A stretch of 64,000 nt of DNA from Eunapius fragilis (Eukaryota > Porifera > Demospongiae > Spongillida > Spongillidae): contig OY811972.1 in NCBI GenBank assembly GCA_963681505.1, positions 7,500,342 through 7,564,341 of the forward strand, in the 5' to 3' direction. The first letter of the stretch is position 1. Each line of letters starts with the position of its first letter. The notes beneath the pieces are model-generated. The model searched no databases and was not told the origin of the DNA. It saw only the letters and a list, made by a program, of their open reading frames with translations. Below are positions 2,411 through 56,594 of this stretch, in pieces. A program made the position numbers and the translations under genes.

Positions 2411-2516
2411 TTGCAATATTTTCACATCCTTATGAAACCTTGGTGGACGCCCAAAATGTAGTATCCAATTCAGCCTAGCTCCTAGCAACAAGATTGTATC
2501 TGCTTCCTTCAGTGCT
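2411..2516 (-). CDS. HACL1: 2-hydroxyacyl-CoA lyase 1, internal exon (eighth in the window)
   Basis: This 106-bp exon is read on the minus strand, with an AG acceptor just above 2516 and a GTTAGT donor just below 2411. It completes an ATA codon split with the exon at 8758-8893 and ends in phase 0. The peptide contains [11 protein letters not shown] followed by a [15 protein letters not shown] stretch. This is the signature of the central domain of HACL1 and the related oxalyl-CoA decarboxylase, where the segment leads to the start of the C-terminal thiamine-diphosphate domain. The following exon should begin with a VDI-like motif; none in correct phase was found down to position 1, so it probably lies outside the window. 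Confidence 0.85.
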
Positions 2517-3114
2517 CTGATTTATTTAAATTCATACTGTTACTACAGAACACGCATGTAACATACACGTACATAATACCACTTACTATACAGCACCATC
2601 ATTATCATACAAGTACAACAACATACACAAACCTGATACATGATCAGTACACTGAGATCGTCATGCTGTGTAATTATACAATCCACTAGAACATCAAACA
2701 TAACCATTTGCCGACAAGTCCACACTAACAAGTGAAGTCAGCAACTGGCAATCAACTGATCATCTCTGAGTAATCACACAGAAACGTTATTAATATTTCT
2801 AACCAAATGCTTCTGATAATTCCCCACATTAAAAAAATAATACAGTACTTGTGTCACCTAATCCCAGCGCTAAAATAGGGAACACCATACTGGAGCAATA
2901 TATATTCACATTAAGTTTTAGAGTCATAATCGTAGCACTAAAATGTGATTTCTGGTCTGCCTTACTCTCAGGTTAAGGCAGTCTAATGAAAAAAAAGTAT
3001 TTGACAGAGATGATGGGTATGTATATTACTTTATGACGATATAAGTTTTATGGATGACATTGACGTTGCATAATTACTTAAACCACATGTGCACAGTAAA
3101 ATGTTGACATGTTG

Positions 3115-3648
3115 AGGGCTGTTCATTAAATACGTCACATTAATTTTTGACCATTATGGACCCTCCCCTCATCCCACAAGAAAAGTGGCCAACAACAACT
3201 TATATAGCCGGTGCCAAGCGGTTAGGGATTCAAAGTTTTACAATGAACAAGACAATGAAAATACGATAGTTTAATCCCTTAGTGTTATTTTCAATGTCCA
3301 GGTTCTTAAACAAATTCGCTCTCCAATATTATAATAGAACAAGCGGGTGCTGTGTACTGTAAGACGTTCAAGACGATAGACACCATTGCACATATATACA
3401 GTTGTTGGTTCCTGCATGTGTTCCGTTCAATAAAATATCAGCCAACCATTAAGATGCCCCTAAAGCATTATTGTGCACAAAGTGAATAACCATGTGTTAC
3501 ATAGTGGTTTTCTATGCGTGCACATTAATGTGCAGTTGGCAAAGATAGAAGAACGTGCACTTTGTGGGCAAAGAGTTAATGTACCTATCAACACACTGAC
3601 TAATACTACCCCTGCCCCCCTTAGGGTGACACTTTTATGAACGGCCCC
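3115..3648. mobile_element. MITE interrupted by a degenerate TTAA-type MITE
   Basis: The outer ends AGGGCTGTTCATTAAATACG and TTTTATGAACGGCCCCT are inverted and match the ends of the compact MITE at 20839-21000. The middle (about 3190-3579) resembles the piggyBac-type MITE at 46741-47371: it shares the AGAACAAGCGGGTG motif, a TTGTGCACAAAGTG segment and a terminal GGGCAAAGAGTTAA. The second element appears to have inserted inside the first. The inner left end is too decayed to place. Confidence 0.6.
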
Positions 3649-4147
3649 TTGAGTATGGCATCAGAGGCCAGACAGCCTAGAATACATTGATGATGTGCAT
3701 TTGGTGGGGTACAAAAAAGGGTTTAACAAAAATGGTTCAAAAGGTCAATTGGCAGAATTGGTATGTCAAAAAGGTTGATAGACATCTTTTTTTACCACAT
3801 CAAGTGAAAAATTAAACTGAACCCTTGTTCAAACCAAAAAGTTGATTATTAATAAAATTCAGAATTCGGAAACCCTTTGTGTAATTTGAAGTAATACAAT
3901 GTTTATTAGGACTAAAAGTTTTAGGAACTGATGCTTGCTAACCGCTCAGTTGATGCCATATGAAGCATTCTACTGTAATGAATGATAATTAGAGCATCGT
4001 TTGAGCAGCTTTTTACAAATAGCCTACGATTTCTAGTTGACAAAGTCTAAACTTAAAACAGAAAGGTCTTCGGTGCATCTATTAAACAGAACTCTCATCT
4101 ATCCATAATACATCTATAAAATCGTCCAGCAGGTTTGCCGAGCACTA

Positions 4148-4464
4148 CAGTAGCTGTCCCAAAAAAGTTTAAGTATTTTAGTAATGCCGTTGCAGTCATA
4201 CGGTTAGAATGTTACCTTTCATAGGCTGTGCAGTCACTGTAACAATGATAAGAACTACATCACTTTATGTGACAACAAATTCCATTCTTTTCAATAAATG
4301 CCGTTTTTGTTTACGGTTAGCTGTGCAGTTTCACATGAGGAAGACCCAGTACAATTAGGTTACGCAAAATGCAAATCTGCGTCCAACAGTGTACTATTAA
4401 CCCTGTATTTAACCAACTGCCTATATGTAACTTTGAACGCCTGATTTGTAATTTGAAGGGATTC
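4148..4464. mobile_element. TA-flanked MITE, family shared with 39525-39822
   Basis: The left end CAGTAGCTGTCC follows a TA. The interior includes CACTTTATGTGACAACAAATTCC and an AGGAAGACCCAGTACAATTAGGTTACGC-like stretch, and aligns in reverse orientation with 39525-39822. The right end near CCTGATTTGTAATTTGAAGGG is decayed. It has no coding capacity and is a Tc1/mariner-type miniature by target site. Confidence 0.6.
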
Positions 4465-5130
4465 TACTTTAACACTCGACAGAAAGCTAAGCCTTCTATG
4501 ATAACAAACCAGATGGAATGAATGGAATTACTTCGTACAAATCTGTACTAGCCAATAATGGACTTCCACAATGATGAATGGCTGCTTCTAACAGCGACAA
4601 AGGCGTACTATTTAAAAGATACAAAACAACTACTCGGAAGCTCTTTTCAACATGTGTGCATGCCTATCAATATAATATACCGTGTTTACCATAAAACTGA
4701 ATTAAACAACCCATTGAGTGCAGATATGTTTGAACGCAAAACTTTACAGTCAAAAGTAGTCCAATTCCAATTTGATAGTAGTTCCTTCCTATATAGCAAT
4801 TGACCCTGGTTGTGAATATTAATTTTAAAACCCGACCCGTGCACAACTCGCGAACCAAGAAACGGATAGTGTAGATCTTTGTTGCTATCGAACCAGAAGG
4901 CAAAGACGTCATTGCAATGTTTTGTTCCAGTGTTGTAACTGCTTGCTTTAAGAGAACAAAAAAGCTCGAATTTTTCCTCGTCCCCAGGCCAATTCTTCTC
5001 CATCGTCGTCGTCGTCTTGTAATTCTTCTAATCAGCTCGAGAAAGGAATGGTGTAAAGAATGCAAATTAGACTAATCGCTTTAGAATCTCCTGGAAAGAC
5101 ATCCCCGGGTAGAAAAAACTGCGTAATCGC

Positions 5131-5472
5131 GTGTTCTTCAAAACGCTGTATCTTATTGATTGTGCAATATAGTAGAGTTACAATTTGCATATTTACAACG
5201 CGGTCCTGTGTCTATTGAAGTCCAAAGATGGTTTAGTTTGCAATGCATTGTTCCGAAGAAATTCACATTCACTTAAAGGGCTTGATGTTGCGGGGTTTTG
5301 TACTTGAAGCCCGCGAAACCTTGCTCTAAGTTGATTGTGAATATCTTCGGAACGATGCATTGCAAACTAAACTATCTTTGGACTTCTATAGACACAGGAC
5401 CACTTTGTAAATGTGCAAAATGTAGTTTTACTATATTGCACAATCAAGAAGATACAGCGTTTTGAAGACAGA
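5131..5472. repeat. Foldback repeat, about 150-bp arms
   Basis: GTTCTTCAAAACGCTGTATCTT on the left pairs with AAGATACAGCGTTTTGAAGAC on the right. Inside, the TCCTGTGTCTATTGAAGTCC and GGACTTCTATAGACACAGGA segments also pair. The hinge is near 5300. There is no gene inside; the frame at 5413-5691 starts in the arm and has no recognisable domain. Confidence 0.7.
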
Positions 5473-8757: not shown

Positions 8758-8893
8758 ATTGATCTTGCAGCAGCAACACAGTAGGGGTGCTCATCAGATA
8801 TCACACCCTTACCCATGGGTGTTGGAAGGAAGGGCAGGGAGTGTGACAATACAAGTCTTTGTGTTTCATACTCAGCACAAGCATATGCGACAC
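8758..8893 (-). CDS. HACL1: 2-hydroxyacyl-CoA lyase 1, internal exon (seventh in the window)
   Basis: This 136-bp exon is on the minus strand, with an acceptor ending TTTCCTCAAG and a GTAAGTG donor. It completes a GGT codon begun in the exon at 10251-10363 and leaves an AT to be completed by the exon at 2411-2516. The peptide runs from GVAYA through LPFLPTPMGKGV to HPYCVAAARS. In HACL1 the LPF-PTPMGKGV-HPYCV segment belongs to the central domain of the thiamine-diphosphate enzyme fold. A plus-strand frame at 8759-8968 overlaps this exon and is only its shadow. Confidence 0.88.
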
Positions 8894-10250: not shown

Positions 10251-10363
10251 CTTTTCCAATAATGACTAATGGCCTTTTAGCGACATGAAGTGCTGCTACT
10301 GCTTGCTTAATTGCAGCAGGATCAGCAAGTACAACTGGAGGTGCTGGACATGTAGGTACAAAC
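10251..10363 (-). CDS. HACL1: 2-hydroxyacyl-CoA lyase 1, internal exon (sixth in the window)
   Basis: This 113-bp exon is on the minus strand, with a CTCTTAG acceptor and a GTTCGC donor (non-consensus after GT). It completes an ATG codon split with the exon at 12895-12989. The peptide goes from FVPTCPAPPVV through a helix (AAIKQAVAALHVAKRP) into LVIIGKG. This matches the start of the central domain of HACL1, where an IR-AKQPLLIIGKG motif opens the Rossmann-like fold. The phase-1 end is completed by the exon at 8758-8893, giving the expected GKG-AYA junction. Confidence 0.88.
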
Positions 10364-12894: not shown

Positions 12895-12989
12895 ATTTTC
12901 TCATCAACTTTCACGGAACTGTTTATCATATTCCCAGGTATCTCCACATAACAAGGCCCAGGTCGTCCAAAGATAGACATTCGAACAGC
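12895..12989 (-). CDS. HACL1: 2-hydroxyacyl-CoA lyase 1, internal exon (fifth in the window)
   Basis: This 95-bp exon is on the minus strand, with a CTGTAG acceptor and a GTAAGC donor. The peptide begins AVRMSIFGRPGPCYVEIPGN, matching the AVR-S-GRPG-CYVDIP motif near the end of the N-terminal pyrimidine-binding domain in HACL1. This conserved Gly-Arg-Pro-Gly-Pro segment is widespread in acetolactate-synthase-like enzymes. It leaves an AT completed to ATG by the exon at 10251-10363. A Tc1-like terminal fragment (13126-13205) sits only 136 bp upstream of the acceptor. Confidence 0.88.
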
Positions 12990-14341: not shown

Positions 14342-14419
14342 CTTCTCAATATGAAATGGAATTGATTCCATGGTTTCCACGCGAACAGCATACTTAGTAT
14401 AAAGTTGGCATGATTCAAT
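14342..14419 (-). CDS. HACL1: 2-hydroxyacyl-CoA lyase 1, internal exon (fourth in the window)
   Basis: This 78-bp exon (26 codons) is on the minus strand, phase 0 at both ends, with a TATAG acceptor and a GTGAGTT donor. The peptide contains LYTKYAVRVETMESIPFHI, matching the RLYTKFSARPSSIEAIPFVIEKA segment of HACL1. In this family the segment lies in the N-terminal domain after the GAFQE-PQ loop. Its upstream neighbour is 25.5 kb away at 39954-40026. Confidence 0.9.
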
Positions 14420-15239
14420 CTATACATGTACGTATATGTAAAGTCAGGAACGAACATGTACTGCTCATGAATATGTATGCATACATTTATACATGGAACA
14501 TTTCTGACCCAGATGTTTCGCTATATATAATCATAAAACATTCTTCGTTGATGTTGCTACAACTTTCACATGATTTACGATACCGACTTACTATCAATCA
14601 CATCTTACTACAGACCATTTCATTTCTGTCAATTAGGTCCTTTCCTTATTGGACTTCTGACGTCCTGCCCATATTGATTTGATCTGTTCGTTAAATTTTA
14701 CTTTATCCGTTGTGACGATATAGCTGGCATGTACATTTCCCACTCGATTAGTGCCAATAATATACACATCCGCCTCCCATACATGTGCAATTGTGAGGAC
14801 GGAGTAGGTGGGGATCAAGTGGGAAAATTGCAAACACTTTGCACAACTACATACTTTGCACAACTATATCTTTGCAACAGGTAGAATAAAAATAAATGAA
14901 CAGATAGCAACAGGACTCTTACGTATATACTGATTTCAAAGTTATTTGAATGCTCCTTCAGAAGTTTAATCATAGATTGATCAAGATTTGATAACTCCAG
15001 TTATCAAACTTCAGCACGACTTTTTGAGCCGTCAGAACTAGGTTTTATAATTACAATTGCACTAAAATGTGTCTCCATGATCGTATGAAATATAAATAGT
15101 CATCAATTGTAATTACCTTATGAAAATTATGATTGATGCATGCACATTCACAACGAACTTATTGTGGTTACCTCTAAGGTACAGCTAGAAAGAAGCAATG
15201 CAATCTTAGCCTCATGATGCACAATATTCATGTTACTAT

Positions 15240-15335
15240 ACTTGTATTACACCTATACAATGTCATTCTTATGAGTACTTTCATCAAGCTGATGAAAATA
15301 CTCATAAGAATGACATTATTTAGGTGTAATCATCA
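15240..15335. repeat. Near-perfect 96-bp palindrome
   Basis: GTCATTCTTATGAGTACTTTCATC is followed, across AAGCT, by GATGAAAATACTCATAAGAATGAC, and the outer TACACCTA pairs with TAGGTGTA. This is a hairpin of about 45-bp arms inside the inverted-ended element at 14974-16186. Confidence 0.8.
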
Positions 15336-15521
15336 GAATGATCATGACATTTTGAATGTGTTCTGGTCAGTGAAAGCAGAAACCTTGCATATGAGCAGCT
15401 CTCCTTTACTCACAGGGATTGTTGACGGTTTTGATTTTAGCAGAGCCTTGTCTGGAAATGACCACAAAAACTAATTTAATACCCTTCTACAACTCTGAAA
15501 ATCCAGTTGTTGTGTTCTGCT

Positions 15522-15961
15522 TCATAGTATGTGCCCACGTTGCTTGGGGATGTAACATGTATCGACCATATTATCGACTTTGGTCCATATGATGCCTTTG
15601 ACAACTAATGGGTCTATTGATGATGGTTCGCGGCCTTCTTCAATTTCTGGTTCCGCAACTGCTAGCTCTTCTGCTGGCAGCTCTTTGTCTGAATCATGTT
15701 CAGCCATGAATATATCATCTTTGATCTCCTCAAAAGTCCCAGCATTCTCAAGTACCTTAGAACTGTGAATAGATTTGCTGATTTTGACATCGTTCCAGCG
15801 TCCCACCATTTGCGCCCACATCCACTACCCTCTGAAGCTATAATTTCACCCGAAATCTTTTTGACCTTTGCATTAGCCCCGTAACGTTGTATTGCTAGCT
15901 CTTTGCCCATCACTGCTGCTGCAGTTGTCTGAACTCTGTACTCAACCATTGACGCTTTCAT
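15522..15961 (-). pseudogene. piggyBac-like transposase N-terminal fragment, frameshifted
   Basis: Two overlapping minus-strand frames form one broken N-terminal region. The first carries MVEYRVQT and SGEIIASEGSGCGRKWW; the second continues RWNDVKISK and an acidic stretch. The pattern of a beta-rich GXG-RKWKVRWND block followed by an acidic tail is also visible in the piggyBac-like pseudogene near 42680-42900 (GRKQKWKVKWNE). No DDE catalytic region follows here. The link to piggyBac is by resemblance between the two window copies and to what I recall of cnidarian piggyBac proteins; it is not proven. Confidence 0.45.
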
Positions 15962-16317
15962 TGTACCAAAGCGTAAATTTTTAATACAACTGCTGCCCTG
16001 TTTTTATCCACACTGCAAATGCAGGTAATGACTGAATACGATCATTAGTACGTTAGAGATAAATACCAATAGGTTTTTAATTCAAATCACTCTACCTCCA
16101 CAATAGATAAATCGAAAACAAATATTGATAACCCCATTGATTGGATAATAACTGGAGTTATCATTGATGAATGTATGATTAAGTTGCGAGCTTCTAGGGG
16201 TAACGCTGATTGAATGTTACAGCAATTCAAATAGACAATAGTATTTAACCTTTTAATTATCAACCGAATAATTCCCTAGGCTGGATACCCACTGATTCAC
16301 TGAATCAGCAACAAATT

Positions 16318-16357
16318 GGGGAGGAGGGAGGAGGAGGGAGGAGGGGGGAGGGGGGCA
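16318..16357 (+). repeat. G-rich purine microsatellite
   Basis: GGAGGAGGGAGGAGG-type repeats form a G-tract-rich strand that could adopt a quadruplex on the plus strand, the non-template strand for HACL1. It is unrelated to any coding region. Confidence 0.8.
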
Positions 16358-17204
16358 ATGGAAGGAGCAGCCCATGAGCCTGTGTTATTGTACCTAAACA
16401 CTCAGCGGCAGTGGGGGCGCCAGTAGTGCTGCTGACCAAAGCCAGCGGCAATGGTCAGGGCTAGACTAGCCAGAATCATTGGGAAGCCCTCCGGCAAGTC
16501 AGGCATCAAGGGGCTTTGGCCCCCTATTGTACCAAGCCAGGACACAGGTTCAGGCTTGGCTAGCTGGCTTTGTAGGGACTAGCCGGTAGTACTCCACACA
16601 AATAAACCCCCAAAATGTAGACCCTACAGCCCTTGGATGGTGCAAATTACTGGTCAGACCCCTGGTAAATCCATTTTAGAGCCAGACATGAAGGAATACA
16701 AATGAGAGCCAATGTGTGCAAACAAACATCTAGTTAGTGAACTTGGCCATTTGAACAGCCAGTTACAGAGACTGCTCTGATCCGAAAGATGCAAGTGTTG
16801 AAGCGGGACGGGTTGAATGAAGGCCAGCTCCTCAAGATAGAATAAAGAAATTTCTTTGCAGTTAGTAGTATGCCATTCCTGAGATGAAACTAAGGGTTTG
16901 ACAGTGGAATCACGCAACCGCCCAAGTAGTGTTGTGTGGCACTGACGGGAGAACAAGAAACCTTGCTGCTCTCCAGTGATAACTGTGACCTGCTGGTCTG
17001 TCTTGGAGTGTGTGATGAACACTCAGCTGATGTCCAGCGAACTGAATGTCCCTTCTGGTCAAAATCTAATGTGGTATGTGATAGGCAGGGACTATCAACT
17101 CACTGATCCAGAGAAAATGCCAGTGACATGGCCGCCTTCAGCACGAGCCCGTCTCACGGTGGGATGGTTGAATCACAATGTTCCAACAAGTTGGACCGTA
17201 TTTG

Positions 17205-17590
17205 AGGGGTACGCACACACCAACACACTTTCACACTTTTGTACACTTGGTCAATGTATACTGCTGTGCCTTCACACTAGCATAGACTTAAAATGTATAT
17301 AGACATACACATACTAAAATATATACCCTGTGATGCCTTCCCACTGTTGTACACTGGTCAATGTACACTGCCATGCCTTCACACTGATATACACTTCTGT
17401 ATGTACACAGCTATGACTTCAGACCCGTGTACATGTACACATCTATATGCAGATATGTACACCAGAGTGAAAGCATAACAGTGTACATTGGCGTGTGCGC
17501 ACAGAAGCCTGCACCAGCGTGCAGGCACAGCAGCGTACACACTGGTATATAGCAGTGTACACAATCCAGACACAATTGCACACATACGTT
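17205..17590. repeat. Degenerate minisatellite with TGTACAC motifs
   Basis: Repeated phrases such as GTACACTGGTCAATGTACACTG, TGCCTTCACACT and ATATACAC recur irregularly at roughly 30-60-bp spacing. The small ORFs on both strands are repeat translations. Confidence 0.6.
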
Positions 17591-17865
17591 AGCAAGTCAC
17601 TTTCATTTGTTGCCCACCTACATTGATTGCATTAAAGAAACTAGCTTAAAGGACAATGCAGCCAAAGTTGTTGCTTCTAATTTTAAATAGTGCATCATAA
17701 TAAAATGTTATGTCCGCTTGACAGCAAATTGCTCACTCATTTAATAAGTCACATTAACATTCACAAATTAATATAATTCAACTCTGGGCCACATGTTCAT
17801 TTACATGTATTAATATGGCAACCTCGAGTGCATCATCGACCTCTCAGTGCACACTTTACCCACTG

Positions 17866-18080
17866 TGACAAACTGACCTTTCGTGCATAGCTAAATGACC
17901 TATATTCAGGAGTAATGTGACAAGGTAACGACGAACTGAACTTACTTTCATGCATAGCTGAATAGATATAGTGACCTACATTCAGGAGGACACTTGCATT
18001 GGCAGTAATGTATGAATGACTTCAGTAAAAATAAGAGTTCTGAAACAGCAAACCTAGGGATAGGGCTACACTTTATCACA
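17866..18080 (+). repeat. 5' LTR of gypsy element 1
   Basis: This matches 20550-20783 with indels. Shared stretches include AGGTAACGACGAACTGAA, CATAGCTGAATAG, ACACTTGCATTG and AAAATAAGAGTTCTGAAACAG. It starts TGAC and ends ATCACA. A primer-binding-like TGATGGCAGCAGTGAG follows two bases later. The LTRs have drifted apart, so the insertion is old. Confidence 0.75.
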
Positions 18081-18151
18081 TATGATGGCAGCAGTGAGAT
18101 GTGATTGTCGGGAAGTCTGCTTGACTGTGCTACGGCGTCAGTCAAGAGGAA

Positions 18152-20519
18152 ATGGTTGGCCTGATCATCCTTATACAATGGATGAAAAAATGCTCAGAAA
18201 GGAGCTACAAGGGATCAGATATGGTAGGACTTGAGGCAACGTTAAAGGCACTGGCAGACGATAGACAGAGGAGACAAGAGATAGCAGCTGAAAGGCGAAT
18301 ACAAGAGACGAGAAAGGAATCGGGAGTGGAAAACCCGAGCTGAGCATTAAATTGGTCCCCCTCTCGGAAAAGGGCAATATCAAGGTATAACTCATCACTT
18401 ATCATTGTAGCTCACAAAGTGGATAAGGAATGTTGGCCTCACTACTTGGCACCTCAGCTAACAGTAAAGGCTCAGCTGGTGTTTGCTACTCTCATAACAG
18501 TGGATGCAGATGACTACGAAGCAATCAAGAATGCTATTCTAGTCTGGTACGATATTAACAAGGAGGTGTATCACAGATGGTTCCGATCTACAGTTCGCAG
18601 TGATGGGGAAAAGAATAGGAAACTGGCCGTTAAGTTGATTGAACTTCAACGGAAATGGCAGAAGGGCTGCATCTCTTACAGGAAATAGTCGGGAAGGAAC
18701 AATTCTACAAGACTATGGTAAATACCGAAAAGAAACTTCGGATAATGGAGCATAACCCTAAGACCTGCGTTGATGCAGGGGAATTTGCCGATGAATATGA
18801 ACAGGCATCATTGCAGGAGCCAGGACAAGAGAAGACCTTAACACAAGATCCACGAAATAAGTTAACGTACGCAGTGGTGCCGTTGCTAAATTGCGGCGTT
18901 CGATGGAAGAATGTCGCAAAAGGTCTTCGGCTTCACAATAGTCAGGAAAAGACAGGAGGAGAACAATTAACTGCTACGATTGCAGAAAAATAGGGCACAT
19001 GTCATGGAGTTGTCCAGAAAAAGGAACTTTACTCTGCCAGGGGCGTCGATGTCAGAAAGAAAAGGATACAAGTCTGAACAATACTGGATCAGTGGATGAC
19101 CAGTACATGAAGAATATATTGCTGGACACAGGTTGCTCCCGAACCATGGTTAAAAAGCGACAGGTACTGCAAGTGAGAATACTGGAAGGGAAAATAGTGT
19201 ACGTACTATGTGCACACGGTGATACTGAACTGTATCCATCAGCAGATATCAGGGATGAAAGAGGTAGTGACGGAAGAAGACAGATGCACAATTCTGGGAC
19301 AAGGAGGAAGGAGAACCTGCATATACTACTGGAGAACAGCTAGAGGAGGTAAAGCAAAAACAATTACTGACATTTTTGGGGAAACACTTGGTTTTCAGCA
19401 AAGAAGTCAGGGCGGACAAACATGCGAGAGCATCATATAGAGACGGGTGATGTGAGGCCCGTTCAGTTGCCAGCATATCGGCTACCCTATGCCTACAGAG
19501 TGGTAGCTAAGGAGCTGAAAGAGATGGAGGAAAGCGGAATAATTGAAACGTCATCAAGTGAATGGTCTTCACCGATCGTGATGGTGAAAAAGAAAGATGG
19601 AAAATTGAGAATGTGCATAGACTACAGATGCTTGAATGCAATGACGAGGTGGAAGCATACCCGATAGTAGATGAGCTTATTGATCCATTGGGCAGAGCAA
19701 GGTTTATTTCCACATTGGACCTTACGATGGGTTATTGGCAGATGCCAGTGGCTGCTCAGGAATGCCAGAAGACAGGGTTTGTTACTCCATGAGGTCTTTT
19801 ACAGTTTAGGGTGATGCCCTTTGGTCTTAGTGGAGTGCCAGTATCGTTCCAGAGATTAATGGACCAGCTGATAAAGGGTTGTCAAGAGTTTGCCGCAGTT
19901 TATCTCGATGACCTAGTCATCTTCAGATTGGAAACTAACACTCAAGTGAGAGGCTTCTTGGGCTTATCTGGCTACTACCAGAGATACATCTCGGATTATC
20001 AACAGTTGCAGCACCGTTGACTGACTTTACTCGTAAGTATGCACCAAACATAGTACAGTGGAGTAAGGCATGTAACAATGCTTTAAAAAGAGCAAAAGGA
20101 CCAATTGTGAAGAAGTGGTATTCTGAGTAGTCCAGACTTCTTAAAACCTTTCATTTTGCAGACAGATGCTTCAGATAGGGGAGCAGGAACGGTTTTAAGT
20201 CAGATCAGAGAAGATGGTGAGGAGCACCCTATGGGATATTACAGCAGAAAGTTCCAGCCAAGCGGAGAGCGTTATTCAACGGTGGAGGAGTGCTTGGCTA
20301 TAAAGCTAGCTATCAGCGCATTTCGGGTGTACTAATTGGGGAGAAAATTCATGATCCAAACACATCATCGCTTGTTCAAATGGTGGGACCGATTAAAGGA
20401 GAGCAACCCACGTCTGTGTCGATGGAGTTTATCACTCAAGCCCTACCAATCTGTAGTGGTACACAGATCAGGAAAGACGAATATGAATGCTGATACTCTG
20501 TCCGGAGCAGCAACAACCT
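18152..20519 (+). pseudogene. Ty3/gypsy gag-pol remnant 1, integrase missing
   Basis: Several short frames in series make a broken polyprotein. A gag region at 18419-18900 has the SCAN-like ILVWYDINKEVY and LAVKLIELQRKW motifs. A CCHC zinc knuckle at about 18970-19020 (CYDCRKIGHMSWSC) is followed by a protease motif LLDTGCS near 19120. Reverse transcriptase blocks follow at 19500-19925: SSPIVMVKKKDGKLRMCIDY, STLDLTMGYWQMP, MPFGL, then YLDDLVIF. The RNase H region at 20155-20330 has LQTDASDRGAG. After it the sequence runs into the 3' LTR; no integrase HHCC or DDE block is present, and part of the connection domain is deleted. Stops and frameshifts are frequent. It cannot make a functional polyprotein. 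Confidence 0.85.
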
Positions 20520-20549
20520 AGTTTGTTTCCGGAGCAGGGAGGTGGAATC

Positions 20550-20783
20550 TGACGAACTGAACTTTCATGCACAGTGGAATAGGTAGGAAAAGTGACCTAT
20601 GTAATGTGACAAGGTGACGAACTGAATTTACTTTCACACATAGCTGAATAGGTATAGTGGCCTACATTCAGAAGGGTGCTATGACACTTGCATTGACAGT
20701 AGTGTATAAATGTACAAGTTACTTTGGTAAAAATAAGAGTTCTGAAACAGCGAACCTAGGGGCTACAGCTATGTTCTATCACA
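20550..20783 (+). repeat. 3' LTR of gypsy element 1
   Basis: It begins TGACGAACTGAAC after a purine-rich GCAGGGAGGTGGAA tract and ends GTTCTATCACA, parallel to the 5' LTR. No matching target-site duplication was found beside the two LTRs, consistent with age or with rearrangement. Confidence 0.75.
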
Positions 20784-20838
20784 ACTACAAATATCCTTTT
20801 CTTAAGATGAAAAGCACACATTCTTGAGTAGGTTTAAA

Positions 20839-21000
20839 GGGGTTGTTCATAAATTATGCCACGCTGAAGGGGAAAGGGGGGTATATCTACCAGAGTGACG
20901 ATGTATACATTATGCATACATCAGTATGGTAAAATGTGTAACAAGGGTGGGGGTGTCCATAATGGTCAAAATTAGCGTGACGTAATTAATGAAAGGCCCC
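20839..21000. mobile_element. Compact MITE with GGGGTTGTTCATAAATTA ends
   Basis: The 162-bp sequence begins GGGGTTGTTCATAAATTATG and ends TGACGTAATTAATGAAAGGCCCC, imperfect inverted repeats of each other. Similar ends bound 3115-3648. No coding capacity. Confidence 0.7.
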
Positions 21001-21120
21001 AAAGCAGCAAGGGCACTTCTAGTCCCAGATATGAATAAGCTCAATGCAACTATCAGTGCCTTGAATGCACTTTTGGAACATGTGTTTGCTGTATGTCGAA
21101 ATACTACACTGCACAAAGGA

Positions 21121-21189
21121 TGTAGGATTAGGTCTTGACTAATTGTTATCACGCGCACCGCACGTGACAATACAATACATTACACCACA
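21121..21189 (-). repeat. LTR of miniature element (3' LTR in element orientation)
   Basis: 69 bp, identical to 22207-22275. It contains CACGCGCACCGCACGTGACA, with a palindromic CACGTG core that could be a transcription-factor site. A shortened tandem echo of its end lies at about 21201-21240. Confidence 0.9.
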
Positions 21190-21525: not shown

Positions 21526-21529
21526 TCTT

Positions 21530-26064: not shown

Positions 26065-26069
26065 TACCC

Positions 26070-37020: not shown

Positions 37021-37039
37021 CTTCCGCAATTAATCAGTT

Positions 37040-38807: not shown

Positions 38808-39297
38808 TACACACACACACACACACATGCACTTACACATGCACACACATACACATACATGTACATACACAAACCAGTGCTACTTAGAATTAGTGGTGTT
38901 CTGGTGGGTATGACTGTCAGTTTGCTATGACCAGATACAAAACCACCCATGGAAGTCACCCACGGAATGTTGATTTACATGAGATGGTGGTAAATAGATA
39001 GGCTAATGCCTTTGTGTTTAGGACTCTGCAATGAATGAGTCGTATGATCACATACCCACCTGAGGATCAGAACAGTTGGTGTCATGTTTTTGGATCTGGG
39101 GCAGTGCCGCTTCCCTACATGTTACAGACCTGTGAGTTCCATAGGCTTTTGCATTTGGTCATATGTGTAGCAAACCTGACAGTCATCTTCACCAGAACCA
39201 CTAATCCTCAGTAGCATTGGGATTTCCGTGTGTGTTTGTGTGAGTGTGTGTGTTTGTGTGTGTGTGAGTGAGTGTGAGTGTTTGTGTGTGTGTGTAG
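38808..39297. repeat. Foldback element with CA/TG microsatellite ends
   Basis: A (CA)n run at 38808-38850 and a (TG)n run at 39228-39297 lie at the outer ends. Inside them AGAATTAGTGGTGTTCTGGT and GTATGACTGTCAG pair with CTGACAGTCATC and ACCAGAACCACTAATC. It is non-coding. Confidence 0.7.
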
Positions 39298-39524
39298 CAT
39301 TGAAACCTTTCTTTCTTGGGGGTTGTGCAATTTACTTTTGTAATGTGTTGACAAGCTACTTCTAGATCTGCTCACCTACAGATTGAAGCCTTGCATACAA
39401 GTAATAAAGACATTCTCAATGAGAAAGTTGATGGCATATAGGATTGGAAGGCAAAAAGAAAGGAAACAAGGGTCTATTAAGGGGAAATGTAATACGCATA
39501 AGCTTTCCATTGAGTGTTAAAGTA

Positions 39525-39822
39525 CAGTCCCGGCTAATAGCAAATCAGGCTTTCAAAAGTTACCAATAGGCAGCCGTTCCAATACAGTGTAAAGGGCTAA
39601 CAGCAGGATGCCGATTTGTGTTTTGCGTAACCGAATTAGACTGGTTCTTCCTCAGTTAAAACGGCATGATGAACCATAAACAAAAACGGTGTTAATTGAT
39701 AGGCATGGAATTCGTTGTCACAAAATGATATAGTTCTTATAATCATTACGGTAACGGCACAGCCTATTAACAGTAACGTTCTAACCGTGCCACAGTAATT
39801 TTTTTTTTCGTGACCGCTACTG
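39525..39822. mobile_element. TA-flanked MITE, family shared with 4148-4464
   Basis: The left end CAGTCCCGGCTAATAG and the right end GTGACCGCTACTG are both flanked by TA. It is 298 bp with AACGGCACAGCCTATTAACA and AACCGAATTAGACTGGTTCTTCCTC inside, matching the 4148 copy in reverse. It lies 131 bp from the HACL1 exon at 39954. Confidence 0.7.
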
Positions 39823-39953
39823 TACAGTACATGTACATTGATAACATGAAGTAAACAACATATATGAATGAAACCAACACGTTCAATAATTACATGTAAT
39901 ACCATCCACTATACCCCAACTGGCACAATGTGTATACATGTCTTACAATATAC

Positions 39954-40026
39954 CTGTGGCCATTCTTGAAATGCTCCCATTCCTCCTTGGTCTTGGTCAT
40001 ATGAACCTGCTATCACCAAAACTGGC
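39954..40026 (-). CDS. HACL1: 2-hydroxyacyl-CoA lyase 1, internal exon (third in the window)
   Basis: This 73-bp exon is on the minus strand, with a GTCTAG acceptor and a GTATAT donor. It completes the TGG codon split with the exon at 48998-49078, then reads PVLVIAGSYDQDQGGMGAFQ and EWPQ. HACL1 has [24 protein letters not shown] at this place, a loop in the N-terminal thiamine-diphosphate-binding domain. It ends in phase 0, matching the exon at 14342. Confidence 0.9.
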
Positions 40027-48997: not shown

Positions 48998-49078
48998 CAG
49001 CAGTTAACCTTTGCATTCGCCATTCCTGCTAGTGCGTGAATCAACCCAGGCCCTGGAACAACAAGACACACAGCTGGC
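48998..49078 (-). CDS. HACL1: 2-hydroxyacyl-CoA lyase 1, internal exon (second in the window)
   Basis: This 81-bp exon is on the minus strand, with a GTCTGCAG acceptor and a GTAAGTG donor. The peptide [20 protein letters not shown] continues NAKVNCW. HACL1 carries [29 protein letters not shown] here. The GPG-IHA-GMANA motif is a fingerprint of the HACL1 and oxalyl-CoA decarboxylase branch of thiamine-diphosphate enzymes. It starts by completing the AGG codon from the exon at 56554 and ends with TG of a TGG codon. Confidence 0.92.
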
Positions 49079-49252
49079 CTGCAGACAAAAAAATCAAGTC
49101 ACATTTATATACGCACTTGGACAATTAATCCAATAAAAAAGTGTTCACCATCTTATGCTGATTTGTTCATACAAATAATGATGCATTAGTGATGGACATA
49201 CATGTAAATACATGCACGTCAAATATAAACATTCCCTTACTGCAGGGTCATT

Positions 49253-49335
49253 GCATTATAAGTGGGGTAAGTGCGTGCTTCACATCTTCACATCCTAATG
49301 AACTTACTCGTATTTGTCTACCTAAGGATGAGTGT
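49253..49335. repeat. Interspersed repeat, copy 2
   Basis: Second copy of the sequence at 2005-2090 (CATTATAAGTGGGGTAAGTG onward), same orientation. Confidence 0.55.
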
Positions 49336-49945
49336 TACTTGAACCAATTATTACATTAATAACCTTAATGGATTACAAAATATACAGCACCCAAAATTTG
49401 CAACTTGGCAGGCTCATAACGTTTCCATTGTTTCTCTGCTAGTGACTTCTTTGGCATCAAATTGAAGCTCAATATACGTAATAATACCTTTAAAGGGTGT
49501 TGTAAGGGTTAAAGAAACATCATAATTTCGCAGATTTCTAAATTGAGACAGTTTAATAAACTGAATTTTTACTTTTCAGGATTGAAGTCTCCATAAATAT
49601 TGATGTTTTAAAAATTCAGTGTATAGATAAGTTCTAGGGACCAATTATTAGCAAACTGAATTGATCAAAGAACAAACTAAAATCTCATTGCACTGTAGAA
49701 ATGGTTTTTAATTCAGAAAATATTTTACTTTCTTGCAATTCTTAAAAGATTGTCATACACAATCAATACAGCATTGCTAAAATATGTAAATCGTAAAGCA
49801 ACTTAAAGTATCAAAAAGTCATGTTGGGAAGATCAGAGCAACATGTTAAAAGAAGGGGGCGGTAAGATAGTACTAAGCATATTAAAAAGTACATTGTAGA
49901 TTTAGAAATTGCTGGCTCCACAAGCTTATGAACGATAGATACTTT

Positions 49946-50905
49946 TCAGACGCACGCTAACAAATGGGACAACGACAAGAGAGCCACAAAACTACCGACT
50001 TTACTTGAAGGGGAAGCGCTTGCTATATGGCTGAACCTGAAAGCCGAAGAAAAAAAGAGCCACGCAGTAGTCAAAGTCTCGCGAATCATGCCAAACACGT
50101 TCATAACGATAAAACAGTTCCGACAGAAAGCTAATTCAGAGCGAGGAATTGTCAATGTTTTTGCACGATCTGAAGCAACTACTAGACCAAGCAATGCCGA
50201 AGCTTGACGCTGGAGCAAAGGAGCAGTTAATAATACATCAGTTTATAGCAGGACTTCCTGGCACCATCAGTAAACAGTTGCAAGCCGCGGGAGATACAAC
50301 CAATCTTCATACCTAACTTGACCACGCGAAGCTGCTAATGTCGCTGGAGGGATGAGCAGACTGTAGCAATCATACGTACAGCAGATGAAAAACCTAGGGT
50401 CAGCGGAACTCGCGTCATGGAACAGTTCATTGAGCCGTCACACTCTCAAAGCAAGTGGAAGCTCTGAGTACATGCCCCAGAAACCAGCAGCTCGACTCTA
50501 GACCCATACGATGCTTCAATTGCCGCAAACTGGGATATATTCGTAGAAACTGTCGCTACCGCTGACCACAGCCGGAAACAAGGAATCAACAGATAAACTT
50601 CAGAGGGATGTCTGCAGCGGGCAGCAGCCACCCCGTAAACTATTGACCCCACATAATCCCATTGTCATAGCCGCCCTTAAAAGAGAAGCATCGACAATCA
50701 TTGGAACGATAGGAGACAAAAAACTGGACATCACGTTGGATACAGGGTCCTTGGTGTCGCTGAATCGTGAGTAAGCACTAACAGGAATGAACAAGGTCGT
50801 GAAAGTCAAACCATCAAAGAACGTTCCTGTAGTGACGGCTGCAGGCCAGGACCTCCACATACTAGACCAAGTAACGGCCCAGGTGAAGTTGAATATGGTA
50901 GACTA
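49946..50905 (+). pseudogene. Ty3/gypsy remnant 3, gag and protease part
   Basis: Plus-strand fragments in several frames show LPTLLEGEALAIWLNL (gag), then KEQLIIHQFIAGLPGTISKQ. A zinc-knuckle-like RCFNCRKLGYIRRNC follows near 50507, in which the His of CX2CX4HX4C is replaced by Tyr. The protease has LDITLDTGSLVSLN (about 50727). Stops and frameshifts abound. The sequence breaks at 50905, where a DNA transposon is inserted. Confidence 0.75.
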
Positions 50906-51996
50906 CAGTACCGGTCAAAATAAACTTTACGTAATTTATTACGGCGTCTCAGTTCTACGGTGCGACCGTTACCGTGTAGTTCTACGTTGTGACCGTAACG
51001 TAAACGTACAGTAAAATAATACGCCGCCGTTACAATGAACGGTACGGTATGATTAATCAATTACGATGACACCGTTTTAAAATAAACGGCACACACCAAT
51101 ATGATGCCGTAAAAACGTTGCCACCTGTTTAACGTTGAAACGTCGAAAATCGTGTACTGGTACTACAAGAAGCTTTGAATAATTTTTTTCGCTTGAAAGG
51201 GACTTAATTTATAAGTTCCTAAAATAACGCTAGGTGTACCTAGCGAAAACGCGAGGTTAACCTAGCGTTTTTTTGATGGTTGAATGCCACTTCACCCGTC
51301 TAGTATTCTTTTTAGGTTTTGAAACTACCTCTCCCTGTATTTCTACATCCTTCCATCCCATATGCCATACGCGCGCATCAATGCATCCTTCAATCGCAAC
51401 CTCTGACCTTTAACTGCTACCTTTGCACCTAGTTCTATACTATTCAAACCCCCACTTGGAGGCGGTGAAAGCCTGCTTCCACACACACAAGAAGACGCCA
51501 TTTCAGACAATAAAATAGCAAGGGCTGTGGATTAATCTACCCACAAAGATCGCTAGGTTTACTTAGCGAACGCTTGGTTTACCTAGCGTTAGGTACTTAT
51601 TCATTAAGGCACCCGAATAGAGAAGCGCTCGTTGCAAGAAGGATTAGTTGCAAAGCGGCAAGGTATTCATGGGTTTATTAAGCGGTATGAGGCTACAGGA
51701 TCAATTGGATGGACTTTCCGATGTAGCGCGTATTGTGAATTAGTCAGCGCCGTTCTCAACGAACTCATTACGCTCTTCGTCGATTTCGAGGTGAGTTAAA
51801 ACGTGCTCCGATACCGTAATTACATTCGTTGAAAACTACGATTACGCCGTTATTACGCCGTCCAATTATCGCGAAGGTAACGGCGTAACCGTACAGTCCA
51901 ATTGGACTGCGAGTCTATAAGCGTACCGTTATAAATATCCAACGTTCTACCGCGACGCCGTAATAAATTACGTAAAGTTTATTTTGACCGGTACTG
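50906..51996. mobile_element. Tc1-like non-autonomous element inserted in gypsy 3
   Basis: CAGTACCGGTCAAAATAAAC at the left and its mirror GTTTATTTTGACCGGTACTG at the right are flanked by TA. The gypsy frame resumes directly after the right TA (VDY before, VHDFLVV after), as expected for TA duplication. The interior matches the copy at 1-620 plus a nested 396-bp MITE (51208-51603). No transposase. Confidence 0.88.
51208..51603. mobile_element. 396-bp MITE inserted at TTAA
   Basis: Its ends, TTTATAAGTTCCTAA and TTAGGTACTTATTCA, are imperfect inverted repeats. Both sides carry TTAA (51204-51207 and 51604-51607). The related copy at 1-620 has a single GACTTAAGGCACCCG at this point, so the empty site is directly visible. 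The interior has palindromes CGCTAGGTGTACCTAGCG and CGCTTGGTTTACCTAGCG. Confidence 0.85.
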
Positions 51997-54597
51997 TATG
52001 TGCATGATTTCCTGGTTGTTGAAACCTGGTTGCTGTTGGCATTGACTTTTGCAACAACAGGGACTGCTGCTAGACTTTCGAACAACTCCAGTCACAGTGC
52101 TTCCCCCACTAAATTCAGAAAGCAGGACACAGAGCTATGACGTGGATGATGGCTACTCCAACCTAGAAAAGATATGGGCACGACAGGCCAAAAAGTGGGA
52201 TCAAGTTTGCAGTGTCGCATAAATCACCAACATTGTGGAAGAAAGCACCATACTGGCATTTGGAGATCACACGGACATAGAAGCCCAGGAATATGTCAGA
52301 CCATGCTTCAATACTGTGGTCAGGAATTCAGTGATCTACTCTTCATTCATCCAGGTGTAACCAACGCTGCCACCCATCACATCAACGCAGTGGGACCCCC
52401 AGCATGCGATCCTCCTATGAGGATACCAGTTCACGTCCAGGAAGAGGTGGAACACCAGATAAGAAACATGCTACATAAGGGCATAATAGAGGACAGCATT
52501 AAACCCAGGAATGGGCCCCTGCAGTTTACATGCGAAAGAAGACAGGTGAAATCTGGCCATGTGTCGACTATCGCGAACTAAACAAACGGACACACAAGGA
52601 TGCCTACCCCTATCCACTAATCGATGAGGTGCAAGACAGATTGTTAGGAGATACTGTCTTACCAAATTGAACTTACACAGTGGATACTGGCAAGTGCCAG
52701 TTAACCAAGAAGATCAAGAGAAAACAGCCTTCTCCCGAAGATCCACTCCCCTAGTGAAGACACACACAAAAAGCATCAACACGAAGCACACCGCAGACTA
52801 CATCAGGCAGGATTGACACTTCTTGGGAGCAAATGCCAGGTTGGAGTTGCACATGTTGTCTACCTAGGACATGTCTTCGCTGCAAAGGGAATGACTCCAG
52901 ACAACAGCAAGGTTCAGGCAGTCCAAGAATGGCCCAGGCCCAGAGATGCTACAGAAGTAAAACAGTTCATAGGCCTCGCATCCTACTATCGAAGATACAT
53001 TCAGCACTTTGCAGACATAGCAAGACCACTCAACAGGTTGACACGAAAAGATACCACATACTGTTGGTCTGAAGAATGCGAGCAAACTATTAGGAATTTA
53101 AAGACGAAGCTAATTGAGGCACCCATCATGGCATATCCAAGATTTGACAAAGAGGCAAGCCCATTGGTTCTCCTAACAGATGCCAGCCTGATAGGATTGC
53201 TGTCCTAGAACAGGGCTGTCCTAGAACAAGATGGTCGGGTGATAGCCTATGCCAGCCAAACGTTGTCAATGTCCAAAGTCAACTACAGCATCATTCAGCG
53301 TGAATGTCTGGCAGTTTTTTGGGGGAAAAAAACAGTTCAGACACTACTCGCTATGACGTCCCTTTCAGCTGTGGACTGACCAGAGCCTCTAAAGTGGTTA
53401 GCTGGGCAGAAAATGGTAGGCACATTGTGTCGATGGGCCATTGCACTGTAGGAATACACTTACGCTAACCTGTACCAAAAGGGGACACTCAATGGAAATG
53501 CAGATAGACATTCCAGGAGAGCAGACCCCAAGAAATCCCCACAGCAGCTACAGCAGTACAGACAAACATATCCATGGAAGGGATGAGGGGTGCGCAACAA
53601 CCGGATGACATCACCAAACATTTGCTGGAAGACCTGACAGCCACCAACCCACTCACAAAGCCATGCGGACAGCAGTTGCAGCCTTGGATAAGATATGCAC
53701 AAATATGGTCACAGCTGTCAGTTGCGGACGTGTAGTGTGCAGAAGATATACCCCTGATCTGACTGGAGACGTGGTCACTCTACCAGTGTTGCCAAAGTGC
53801 CTACAACACAAAGCACTTGTTCAGTGCCATGATCATCCTGCAGCTGGCCACCAAGGTTCTCCAAGGAAACTGCATCACCTAAGGCAACAAGCGTACTGGG
53901 TGAGCATGGCCCAAGGCGTAGATCAACACAGTAGAGAGTGCCAGAAATGCCAAAATTCCAAACTATCCACACCAACACGAGCATCACTTCCAGCCTGCCC
54001 ATTGGCAGACCATGGCAGATGGTTGCCATTGATATCCTGCAAGTACCAATCGCCACCAACAACAATAAATACCTCCAGGCAATGCAGGGTTACTTTATCA
54101 AGTAGGTAGATGCCAAGCCAAACAGTGACCTGACAGCTGCTACTATCTCCACAGAACTGGTCAAACTGTTCAGTACCCATACCATACCAGAAATTACCCA
54201 CTTTGCAGGGTGCAAACTTTGAAAGTACGATCATTGGGCAAACTCAGGAGGCCTTTGGATTAAAGAAATCACACACTACACCATATCACCCTGAGGGAGA
54301 TGGCATGGTTGAGCGATTAATCGGTCTCTATTGCAGTTGTTTGTTACGCACATACGTTGAAAAGAAAGAGGAGTAGGAATAGTCCTCTTTGCCTACAGAA
54401 CTGCTGTGCACTCCTCAACTGGTGTGACGCCTTTCATGCTAATGTACGGAAAAGCACCGTCAAATGGCATTTTCACGTCGCCAATGCAGCAAGAGGCCAA
54501 TCATTTTCCAGCAGTACTGCAGTCTAAACTGGCTAAACTATACAGGATCTTGTTGAGGCACACAATGCAGAGGCTGCTAGCAGTTTGTTGTTCATAG
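51997..54597 (+). pseudogene. Ty3/gypsy remnant 3, pol part
   Basis: Reverse transcriptase traces include VHVQEEVEHQIRNMLHKGII (52430) and SGYWQVPVNQEDQEKTAF (52675). The YXDD active-site segment is missing, with a deletion near 52740. Then come VVYLGHVFAAKGMTPDNSKV, the ASYYRRYIQHFADIARPLNR block and RNase H LLTDASL (53170). Integrase follows: the zinc region HDHPAAGHQGSPRKLHHLRQ and CQKCQNSK (53830-53960), DDE traces to about 54350, and HSSTGVTPFMLMYGKAPS (54405). It has many stops. No LTRs were found at either end. Confidence 0.82.
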
Positions 54598-54598
54598 A

Positions 54599-54862
54599 AT
54601 GGGCAAAGAATTTCTGCTATGGTGGAAAGCATGGGTCGACAAATACCCCAACCTTAGTGCACTGGTTAGATGGATCTGGGCTATCCCAGCAACATCAGCA
54701 CCTTCAGAAAGGCTGTTTTCTCAAGCTTCACTTTTGTTAACCAAGAAGCGATCACGTCTCACAGATGACTATGCAAGTAAATTTATCATGTTAAATGGAT
54801 GCTGGGAACTCGTAGAAGATGTATTCAATGTAGATGGTCGACCAAGACTAAAAGAAAGTTAA
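54599..54862 (+). pseudogene. hAT transposase C-terminal dimerisation fragment
   Basis: An 87-codon frame with WWKAWVDKYPNLSALVRWIW, then AIPATSAPSERLFSQAS and LLTKKRSRLTDDYASKFIML. The P-L--LA---L-IPATSAPSER-FS pattern followed by KRSRL is the conserved C-terminal dimerisation domain of hAT transposases. It is open to the stop, and joins the gypsy remnant at its left side with no visible spacer. The catalytic part is absent, so the fragment is inactive. It could also be part of a domesticated hAT gene's last exon, but no upstream exon was found. Confidence 0.85.
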
Positions 54863-55482
54863 GAAACAAACGAGATAGACCACTTTGAACTTTTGGGAAT
54901 TACGTATTAATCATGCATTAGATTGATGAAGCATACTTGAACAAAAACGTGCCAGGTGAAATGGTTTTAATTAGCTAGTGCATGCGGCGGTATTATACTA
55001 AACACGAACCGCACAATTTATTCACGTATAGGAGTTATACACTACGCCTATTATGATGTACGTTACGCTTACGGTTATGCAGTACAACAGCCAAGGCGTA
55101 AATAATTACTTAAGCTTTTTTATAACCTCTACTGTACTATAAAATAGTCAAATTGGAAACAACAATATAAAGTACCCCAAATACACTTGAAAACATTGAC
55201 ATAGTATTGAGAGGCATAACATTTTACAGCATCCATACATGTAGCTGATATGTTTTACCACACAGCGGTATGATTGGCATGAAATTAGTAATATTCATTT
55301 TACAAAGTCATAAACATATACTTCCTCAATGCTGTCGCGGACTTTAGTATTGCCACACATTTACATGTACTTCATGTTATTGTAACAACTGCACCCATCA
55401 ATGAACGTACATGAACTGATATAAATATAGACAGTTGCAGGTAAATTTTCAAAAGTACATGAGCGTTCGCACGTGGCACCTA

Positions 55483-55961
55483 CAGTATGGGACACGAAAA
55501 AGGTTACGTTCCGTATTGTTAGCACGCCATATGTACGATTGTATAGTTTCGAACTACGCTGGTATACACGGTATCAATTATCGTGTATGAATACGTTTAC
55601 GTCTGTACTATCGTGCGCATCGTATCTACGCTTACGTAGCTTCTGGAATCAAGCGCAAGAGGAAATAAACCATCACAACGTTGTTAGATTGGTTTCCGTT
55701 CGATTTGGAGACACTTACTTTCTTTTTCTGAAGACTTCAGAACGCATCGCGACAGCTAAAGCGACTCACGATGAACGCGGCGCACAAACGCAACGGTAGC
55801 GTGCAGCCAGGTAGTGCAAACGATGGAATGCGTGTACGCAATCAACACCCATCAACACACCTTACAGACGCAATTTGTACTTCGTATAACAGGCTGTAGT
55901 CAACACCGCGCAACGATCGTTTTATGTAAACGGAACGTAACCTTTTTCGTGTCTCCTACTG
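55483..55961. mobile_element. TA-flanked MITE, 479 bp
   Basis: The left end CAGTATGGGACACGAAAAAG and the right end CTTTTTCGTGTCTCCTACTG are inverted repeats of about 32 bp continuing GTTACGTTCCGT, with TA on both sides. Frames inside are not conserved. A second copy in opposite orientation lies 45 bp away. Confidence 0.85.
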
Positions 55962-56006
55962 TACTTCACTATAAATGTACACCACATTTAATAGCACATC
56001 TGCATA

Positions 56007-56528
56007 CAGTAGGAGACACGAAAAAGGTTACGTTCCGTTTACATAAAACGATCGTTGCGCGGTGTTGATTACAGCCTGTTATACGAAGTACAAATTGCGT
56101 CTGTAAGGTGTGTTGATGGGTGTTGATTGCGTACACGCATTACATCGTTTGCACTACCTGGCTGCACGCTACCGTTGCATTTGTGCGCCACGTTCTTCGT
56201 GAGTTGCTTTAGCTGTCGCGATGCGTTCTAAAGTCTTCAGAAAAAGAAAGTCTCTCCAAATCGAACGGCAACCAATCTAACAACGTTGTGATGGTTTATT
56301 TCCTCTGCGCTTGATTCCAGAAGCATAACGCGCGTACGTAAGCGTAGATACGATGCGCACAATTGAAACGATACATACAGACATAAAACGGATTCATACA
56401 CGATAATTGATACCGTACCTGCGCTCGAACGTGTTAACTCCGTGTATACCAGCGTAGTTCGAAACTATACAATCGTACATATGGCGTGCTAACAATACGG
56501 AACGTAACCTTTTTCGTGTCCCATACTG
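56007..56528. mobile_element. TA-flanked MITE, 522 bp, inverted partner
   Basis: It starts CAGTAGGAGACACGAAAAAG and ends CTTTTTCGTGTCCCATACTG, with TA on both sides, and is the reverse complement of 55483-55961 over nearly all its length (for example CAACGTTGTGATGGTTTATT). Its right border is 26 bp from the HACL1 exon at 56554. Confidence 0.85.
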
Positions 56529-56553
56529 TATACAAAATACAAATATTAGTTAC

Positions 56554-56594
56554 CTTCCAGTCATATATCCAATAGCTGAAGCCGCATAGCTAGC
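56554..56594 (-). CDS. HACL1: 2-hydroxyacyl-CoA lyase 1, internal exon (first seen in the window)
   Basis: This 41-bp exon is on the minus strand, with a TTTCAG acceptor and a GTAACT donor. It reads ASYAASAIGYMTG and leaves AG to be completed to AGG (Arg) by the exon at 48998. HACL1 has AACYAASAIGYLTSRP at this point, just after the conserved NEQ region that includes the cofactor-activating Glu. Short exons are easy to misassign, but the in-phase join with the next exon gives the family's continuous motif. The preceding exon, ending in a MRNEQ-like sequence, was not found between here and 64000. Confidence 0.82.

What the first reader, a model, noticed from the sequence alone, without database searches (positions are those of the whole stretch)
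2411..56594. Eight short exons of a HACL1-type enzyme hidden across 54 kb of transposons
All eight exons lie on the minus strand in the correct protein order, with GT/AG borders and phases that match at every junction (2/1, 2/1, 0/0, 0/0, 2/1, 1/2, 2/1). Together they give 241 codons of continuous family-like sequence. The exons are 41-136 bp and were not visible as ORFs of meaningful length. The sequence shows the exons and borders; identity rests on remembered HACL1 motifs such as [27 protein letters not shown] and [11 protein letters not shown].
Basis: partly seen in the sequence, partly recalled or inferred. Interest (0 to 1): 0.75.

Follow-up and report, generated by a model that had tools for sequence, protein, structure and literature searches.

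The report
Very long peroxisomal HACL1 gene, sponge
The eight small exons are real: they are the middle of one intact 17-exon gene for a well-known peroxisomal fatty-acid enzyme (HACL1) in a freshwater sponge, ordinary in kind but spread over about 118 kb of intron-rich DNA with transposon pieces in it.

Summary
Confirmed. A splice-aware profile alignment scored 758 on this strand against at most 24 in five controls. Flanking chromosome sequence completes the gene: 17 coding exons, 16 introns (700-25,534 bp), 117,667 bp from ATG to stop, 574 aa, no N in the span. The protein has all three ThDP-enzyme domains, matches HACL/oxalyl-CoA-decarboxylase structures almost end to end, carries the glutamine reported for lyases rather than decarboxylases and ends in SKL, a classical peroxisomal signal. 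"Across transposons" is partly right: two introns hold transposon or retroelement pieces; the repeat share was not measured. Best reading: an intact peroxisomal 2-hydroxyacyl-CoA lyase gene, a new member of a known kind. The one mild surprise is its size, roughly 25 times the published mean transcript length. Transcription and copy number were not settled here.

The parts
56554..56594 (-). HACL1 coding exon 2 of 17 (41 bp, phase in 0, out 2)
48998..49078 (-). HACL1 coding exon 3 (81 bp, phase in 2, out 2; [26 protein letters not shown])
39954..40026 (-). HACL1 coding exon 4 (73 bp, phase in 2, out 0; carries F114-Q115, the glutamine reported for lyases)
14342..14419 (-). HACL1 coding exon 5 (78 bp, phase in 0, out 0)
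12895..12989 (-). HACL1 coding exon 6 (95 bp, phase in 0, out 2; FGRPGPCYVEIPG)
10251..10363 (-). HACL1 coding exon 7 (113 bp, phase in 2, out 1)
8758..8893 (-). HACL1 coding exon 8 (136 bp, phase in 1, out 2; LPFLPTPMGKG)
2411..2516 (-). HACL1 coding exon 9 (106 bp, phase in 2, out 0; [11 protein letters not shown])
14420..39953 (-). intron 4 (25,534 bp), holding transposase and integrase pieces and tandem arrays
49079..56553 (-). intron 2 (7,475 bp), holding retroelement pieces on the plus strand at 52705-54109

Best explanation
This is the middle of an intact 17-exon nuclear gene, on chromosome 2 of a genome that matches the freshwater sponge Eunapius fragilis, for peroxisomal 2-hydroxyacyl-CoA lyase of the HACL1 type. 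Shown from sequence: a continuous 574-aa frame over 17 exons with GT/AG borders, the three ThDP-enzyme domains, the conserved Glu of RNEQ (E52), the GDS...NNN cofactor motif, the lyase-type glutamine (Q115) and a C-terminal SKL. Inferred: the transcript is spliced from a pre-mRNA of about 118 kb; the protein is imported into peroxisomes through PEX5 and binds ThDP; it splits 2-hydroxyacyl-CoAs (for example 2-hydroxyphytanoyl-CoA from dietary or algal phytol) into an aldehyde one carbon shorter and formyl-CoA, the step after phytanoyl-CoA hydroxylase in alpha-oxidation. The introns are long at least partly because mobile elements and tandem repeats have inserted or grown in them.
For: Ordered exons by tblastn of 55 bacterial homologues. 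Splice-aware score 758 against at most 24 in five controls. Complete frame with ATG and stop, ends WLTRSKL. No N in the 117,667-bp span, so no assembly gap shows inside the gene. Pfam TPP N/M/C 116, 113 and 81 bits. PDB hits 8vzj, 8vzd and 8vzc over nearly the whole length. Q115 aligns with the Gln of the GAFQE block of 8vzj and 8vzc; passages of PMC8760513 and PMC13327070 give a Gln there in HACLs (Q113 RuHACL, Q123 human HACL1) and a Glu preceded by Tyr in oxalyl-CoA decarboxylase. The PhyH family, to which the enzyme of the preceding pathway step belongs (recalled), has 3 matches in the same genome.
Against: No transcript or splice-junction data were available. The weakest pieces are exon 2 (41 bp, E 0.012 alone), exon 17 (33 bp, E 0.42 alone, and found by pattern search in three frames of about 33 kb) and the joint of exons 15/16, which I set by eye to keep length and frame. 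Splice borders and absence of stops are partly built into the alignment program. NCBIfam has no model shown that accepts the protein: none of the 25 families shown (of 51 matched) reaches its cut-off, and the best is an OXC equivalog, NF006721, at 535 against 557. A second copy elsewhere is not excluded, because the whole-protein search of the genome never ran (nine busy errors).
Confidence: 0.96

Rival explanations
1. The gene encodes an oxalyl-CoA decarboxylase rather than a lyase.
For: Best NCBIfam matches are OXC equivalogs (535 and 499 bits); it has a tyrosine after NNNGI (Y481) that recall places at OfOXC Y483; the top PDB hit 8vzj and several others carry the name oxalyl-CoA decarboxylase.
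Against: Both OXC equivalog cut-offs are missed (557 and 739.4). The diagnostic position is F114-Q115, not Y-E as in OfOXC. 8VZC, also deposited as oxalyl-CoA decarboxylase, is treated as HACL1-related in PMC13327070 (passage). The long-known OXC structures score lower (2q27 397 bits, 7ayg 384, 2c31 378, against 607 for 8vzj).
Confidence: 0.03
2. A decaying or silent copy: an old gene bloated by transposons and no longer made.
For: Introns of up to 25.5 kb with mobile-element pieces; no transcript evidence available.
Against: 574 codons without a stop, 16 of 16 introns with GT/AG borders (partly built into the method), active-site motifs and targeting signal intact. The TPP_enzyme_N and TPP_enzyme_C searches of the genome found one place each, both in this gene (2 candidates scored in each), so there is no sign of a working replacement, though exon-split genes are easily missed.
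Confidence: 0.02
3. A chance or composite assembly of exon-like pieces, or a contaminating bacterial gene.
For: Individual exons are short and invisible as long ORFs (none among the 29 ORFs of 120 aa or more).
Against: Score 758 against at most 24 in five controls; 16 introns and a peroxisomal signal argue against a bacterial gene; no N inside the span.
Confidence: 0.005

Closest known systems
Human HACL1 (2-hydroxyacyl-CoA lyase 1, UniProt Q9UJ83; accession seen in PMC13327070)
   Different: Ends in SKL where recalled human HACL1 ends in SNM. Human gene size and intron positions were not compared with any data.
Bacterial HACL1-related lyases (8vzj, 8vzd, 8vzc; RuHACL 6xn8)
   Same: Similarity over nearly the whole length (607, 599, 558 and 499 bits); the F-Q motif is in 51 of the 55 homologues collected, the other 4 not matched by the pattern; 49-52% identity to the eight best of these 55.
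   Different: Bacterial genes in one open frame; in the alignments shown they lack about 10 residues after NNNGI...G and about 6 before the GDS motif.
Oxalyl-CoA decarboxylase (2c31 of O. formigenes and 2q27; source organisms recalled)
   Same: Same superfamily, matched over residues 4-561.
   Different: OXC has Tyr-Glu (Y120-E121 in OfOXC) where this has Phe-Gln; OXC equivalog cut-offs not met.
Actinobacterial HACL (AcHACL, 7pt1-7pt4)
   Same: Same reaction class.
   Different: Distant (184 bits); the NCBIfam model NF058623, taken to be this type, is far below cut-off here (251.5 against 600).

Membership tests
HACL1-type 2-hydroxyacyl-CoA lyase | ThDP-dependent enzyme with N, central and C domains in order | tested here: met
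   PF02776 7-119, PF00205 195-324, PF02775 391-552, all above cut-off
HACL1-type 2-hydroxyacyl-CoA lyase | Glutamine (not Glu after Tyr) at the active-site position Q113 RuHACL / Q123 human | tested here: met
   F114-Q115 in the GAFQE block, aligned with 8vzj and 8vzc; rule from passages of PMC8760513 and PMC13327070; no alignment to RuHACL or OfOXC itself was printed
HACL1-type 2-hydroxyacyl-CoA lyase | Conserved ThDP-activating Glu and cofactor motif GD...NN | tested here: met
   E52 in MRNEQ, G449-D450-S451 and N476-N478; the roles of these motifs are recalled
HACL1-type 2-hydroxyacyl-CoA lyase | Peroxisomal targeting signal type 1 | tested here: met
   The frame ends SKL-stop in exon 17, the exon with the weakest support on its own; import itself not tested
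HACL1-type 2-hydroxyacyl-CoA lyase | Cleavage of 2-hydroxyacyl-CoA to formyl-CoA and aldehyde | not testable with these tools
   needs an enzyme assay
HACL1-type 2-hydroxyacyl-CoA lyase | Groups with animal HACL1 in a gene tree | not tested
   No animal sequence was fetched; only a recalled human sequence was aligned
Oxalyl-CoA decarboxylase | Curated equivalog score | tested here: not met
   NF006721 535 < 557; TIGR03254 498.8 < 739.4
Oxalyl-CoA decarboxylase | Tyr-Glu pair at OfOXC 120-121 | tested here: not met
   Phe-Gln here

The most novel reading that the evidence does not exclude
The HACL1 locus of this sponge is a genuine outlier: a housekeeping peroxisomal gene about 25 times longer than the published mean transcript length of the genome, in a nerveless animal group reported to have short genes. 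If so, transposon-driven intron growth has been tolerated in a metabolic gene, and such genes may be fragmented or missed in sponge annotations.
Probability: 0.3. Interest if true: 0.3.

Novelty: new member of a known kind. Interest (0 to 1): 0.2.

Why it matters
It indicates that a sponge keeps a complete peroxisomal-type lyase of alpha-oxidation with an intact targeting signal. It is also a clear example of a small-exon, long-intron gene that ORF-based reading of a compact genome would miss. The assembly's own BUSCO completeness is only 60% (passage), and genes built like this one may be part of the reason; that link is inference.

Tried and rejected
OXC identity was considered and set aside on the Phe-Gln motif and the missed NCBIfam cut-offs. 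Chance assembly was rejected by five controls. Duplicate or alternative exons were looked for with the finished protein against 174 kb: the 17 exons were the 17 best matches, and nothing else was better than E 4.8. Nested host genes: 15 of the 29 window ORFs of 120 aa or more were scanned against Pfam (1, 9, 5); 6 of the 15 matched, all transposase or retroelement families, two of those matches (rve_3 in 24793-25668, RT_RNaseH_2 in 52705-53208) below Pfam's own cut-off; 9 matched nothing. The other 14 ORFs and all shorter ones were not scanned. With the lower intron penalty the alignment placed three tiny false exons between exons 15 and 16; extending exon 15 to the donor at -22874 removed the need for them. 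Spongilla lacustris was considered as the organism and dropped: 248.7 Mb and a 28.04-kb mitochondrial genome (abstract and passages of PMC12141999) do not fit. A size comparison with catalase as a yardstick gene was tried and never answered. Papers on alpha-oxidation in sponges: none among the 10 listed of 191. A search for 'Eunapius fragilis' or HACL1 listed 5 of 243 papers; only the genome note named this sponge, with 0 mentions of HACL1.
Full report
What was checked. Eighty bacterial loci encoding relatives were collected (the cap of that search). Fifty-five long frames from them, used as tblastn queries against 144 kb (the window plus 40 kb on either side), gave an ordered chain of minus-strand matches running past both ends of the window.

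Gene model. A profile of 44 of these proteins (568 columns) was aligned to the minus strand with a splice-aware dynamic program of my own. The score was 758 with the penalty of 11; controls with the same penalty gave 23.6 (plus strand), 21.9-23.9 (three shuffled profiles) and 21.6 (reversed profile). The program admits only GT or GC donors and AG acceptors and penalises stops, so these two features are partly built in; the score gap is the test. Reading the flanks gave the start codon and the exon 15 donor, and a search of 30 kb more gave the last exon. The final model, in window coordinates with negative numbers below base 1, is: 73363-73524 (ATG), 56554-56594, 48998-49078, 39954-40026, 14342-14419, 12895-12989, 10251-10363, 8758-8893, 2411-2516, -2794 to -2711, -4555 to -4451, -9664 to -9611, -10465 to -10365, -20685 to -20521, -22874 to -22767, -37375 to -37186, -44142 to -44110 (stop). 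That is chromosome position C2:7456199-7573865, 117,667 bp, with 16 introns of 700-25,534 bp totalling 115,942 bp, each GT...AG, and no N in the span. The frame is 574 aa with no internal stop. When the finished protein was searched back against 174 kb, the 17 exons were the 17 best matches. Exon 2 (E 0.012) and exon 17 (E 0.42) are weak alone and rest on order, phase and borders.

Identity. Pfam gives TPP_enzyme_N, M and C over cut-off. PDB sequence search gives matches over nearly the whole length to proteins named 2-hydroxyacyl-CoA lyase and oxalyl-CoA decarboxylase, best 8vzj (606.6 bits, residues 6-571, named oxalyl-CoA decarboxylase). The long-known oxalyl-CoA decarboxylases score less (2q27 397, 7ayg 384, 2c31 378 bits), and the two NCBIfam OXC equivalogs are below cut-off. 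Passages of PMC8760513 state that HACL enzymes have a glutamine contacting the substrate oxygen where OXC has Glu, with a preceding Tyr. A table passage of PMC13327070 lists Q123 for human HACL1 and E121 for OXC, and the same paper treats 8VZC as HACL1-related. This protein has F114-Q115 there, as do 51 of the 55 bacterial homologues (the other 4 did not match the search pattern). It ends in SKL, the classical peroxisomal signal (established knowledge), in a separate 33-bp exon.

Organism. G000 has 218,937,333 bases in 24 contigs; C2 is 17,636,043 bp; C24 is 28,504 bp, carries a COX1 frame with TGA codons and COX2, COX3 and ATP synthase subunit genes read with code 4. The abstract and table passages of PMC12616128 give 218.91 Mb, 23 chromosomes, chromosome 2 of 17.64 Mb and a 28.5-kb mitochondrial genome for Eunapius fragilis. 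The match is by numbers, not by sequence, but it is specific.

How it most likely works. HACL1 cleaves 2-hydroxyacyl-CoAs in peroxisomal alpha-oxidation (abstract beginnings of PMC1913525, and PMC8781152, as listed). The same genome holds PhyH-family matches at three places, the family of the preceding enzyme (recalled), although the family is broad and orthology was not tested. Phytol from algal food or symbionts as the substrate source is inference. TPP_enzyme_N and TPP_enzyme_C searches of the genome each found one place, both in this gene, but such searches saw only one of its exons each, so copy number stays open. The whole-protein search did not complete.

Surroundings. The 25.5-kb intron 4 holds DDE_Tnp_1_7 transposase pieces (27420-28136 and 31097-31801, minus; piggyBac type by recall), integrase pieces (24793-26463, plus) and tandem arrays (21390-21915, 26379-26968, 29748-30052, 35969-36510). 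Intron 2 holds an integrase zinc-binding piece and an RNase H-like match just under Pfam's cut-off (52705-54109, plus; Ty3/gypsy type by recall). So mobile elements are there in pieces, but the share of the introns they make up was not measured.

Is it unusual? The family is ordinary. [quoted passage not shown] If that mean is of spliced transcripts, the ratio of 25 does not hold. Dividing 218.9 Mb by 26,614 genes gives about 8.2 kb per gene. [quoted passage not shown] A yardstick gene in this genome could not be measured, so I do not claim that the locus is exceptional.

Verdict.

Noticed in passing
window 27420-28136 (-) and 31097-31801 (-): Two pieces of a DDE_Tnp_1_7 transposase (piggyBac type by recall; profile positions 153-349 and 1-169) lie in order on the minus strand within the 25.5-kb intron, separated by about 3 kb.
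   Followed up: partly
window 24793-26463 (+), 52705-54109 (+); L007 7022-9067 (-): Retroelement pieces (Ty3/gypsy type by recall) in two introns, and a longer open frame with RT, RNase H and integrase domains just upstream of the gene.
   Followed up: partly
window 21390-21915: Minisatellite arrays (28-bp and 23-bp units, 4.8 and 16.8 copies) over which three plus-strand frames stay open for 176-238 codons: probably a tandem-repeat effect, not a gene.
   Followed up: no
G000 C9:9625139-9626160 and C9:9674219-9675257, with weaker ones on C2, C3, C7, C11: Nuclear matches to COX1 (11 besides the mitochondrial one); those on C9, C11, C2 and C3 carry stop codons under the standard code (TGA alone, a sense codon in this mitochondrion, on C2, C3 and one C9 match), the three on C7 do not. 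Probably mitochondrial insertions, at least in part.
   Followed up: no
G000 C3:8601856-8602536 and C3:8633695-8634375: Two PhyH-family matches about 32 kb apart (start to start) with open frames of 386 and 376 aa.
   Followed up: no
L091 3320-4555 (+) and 7034-8947 (+): Open frames of 411 and 637 aa downstream of the gene without a Pfam match at E 0.001; the second looks rich in Ser, Thr, Lys and Pro by eye.
   Followed up: no
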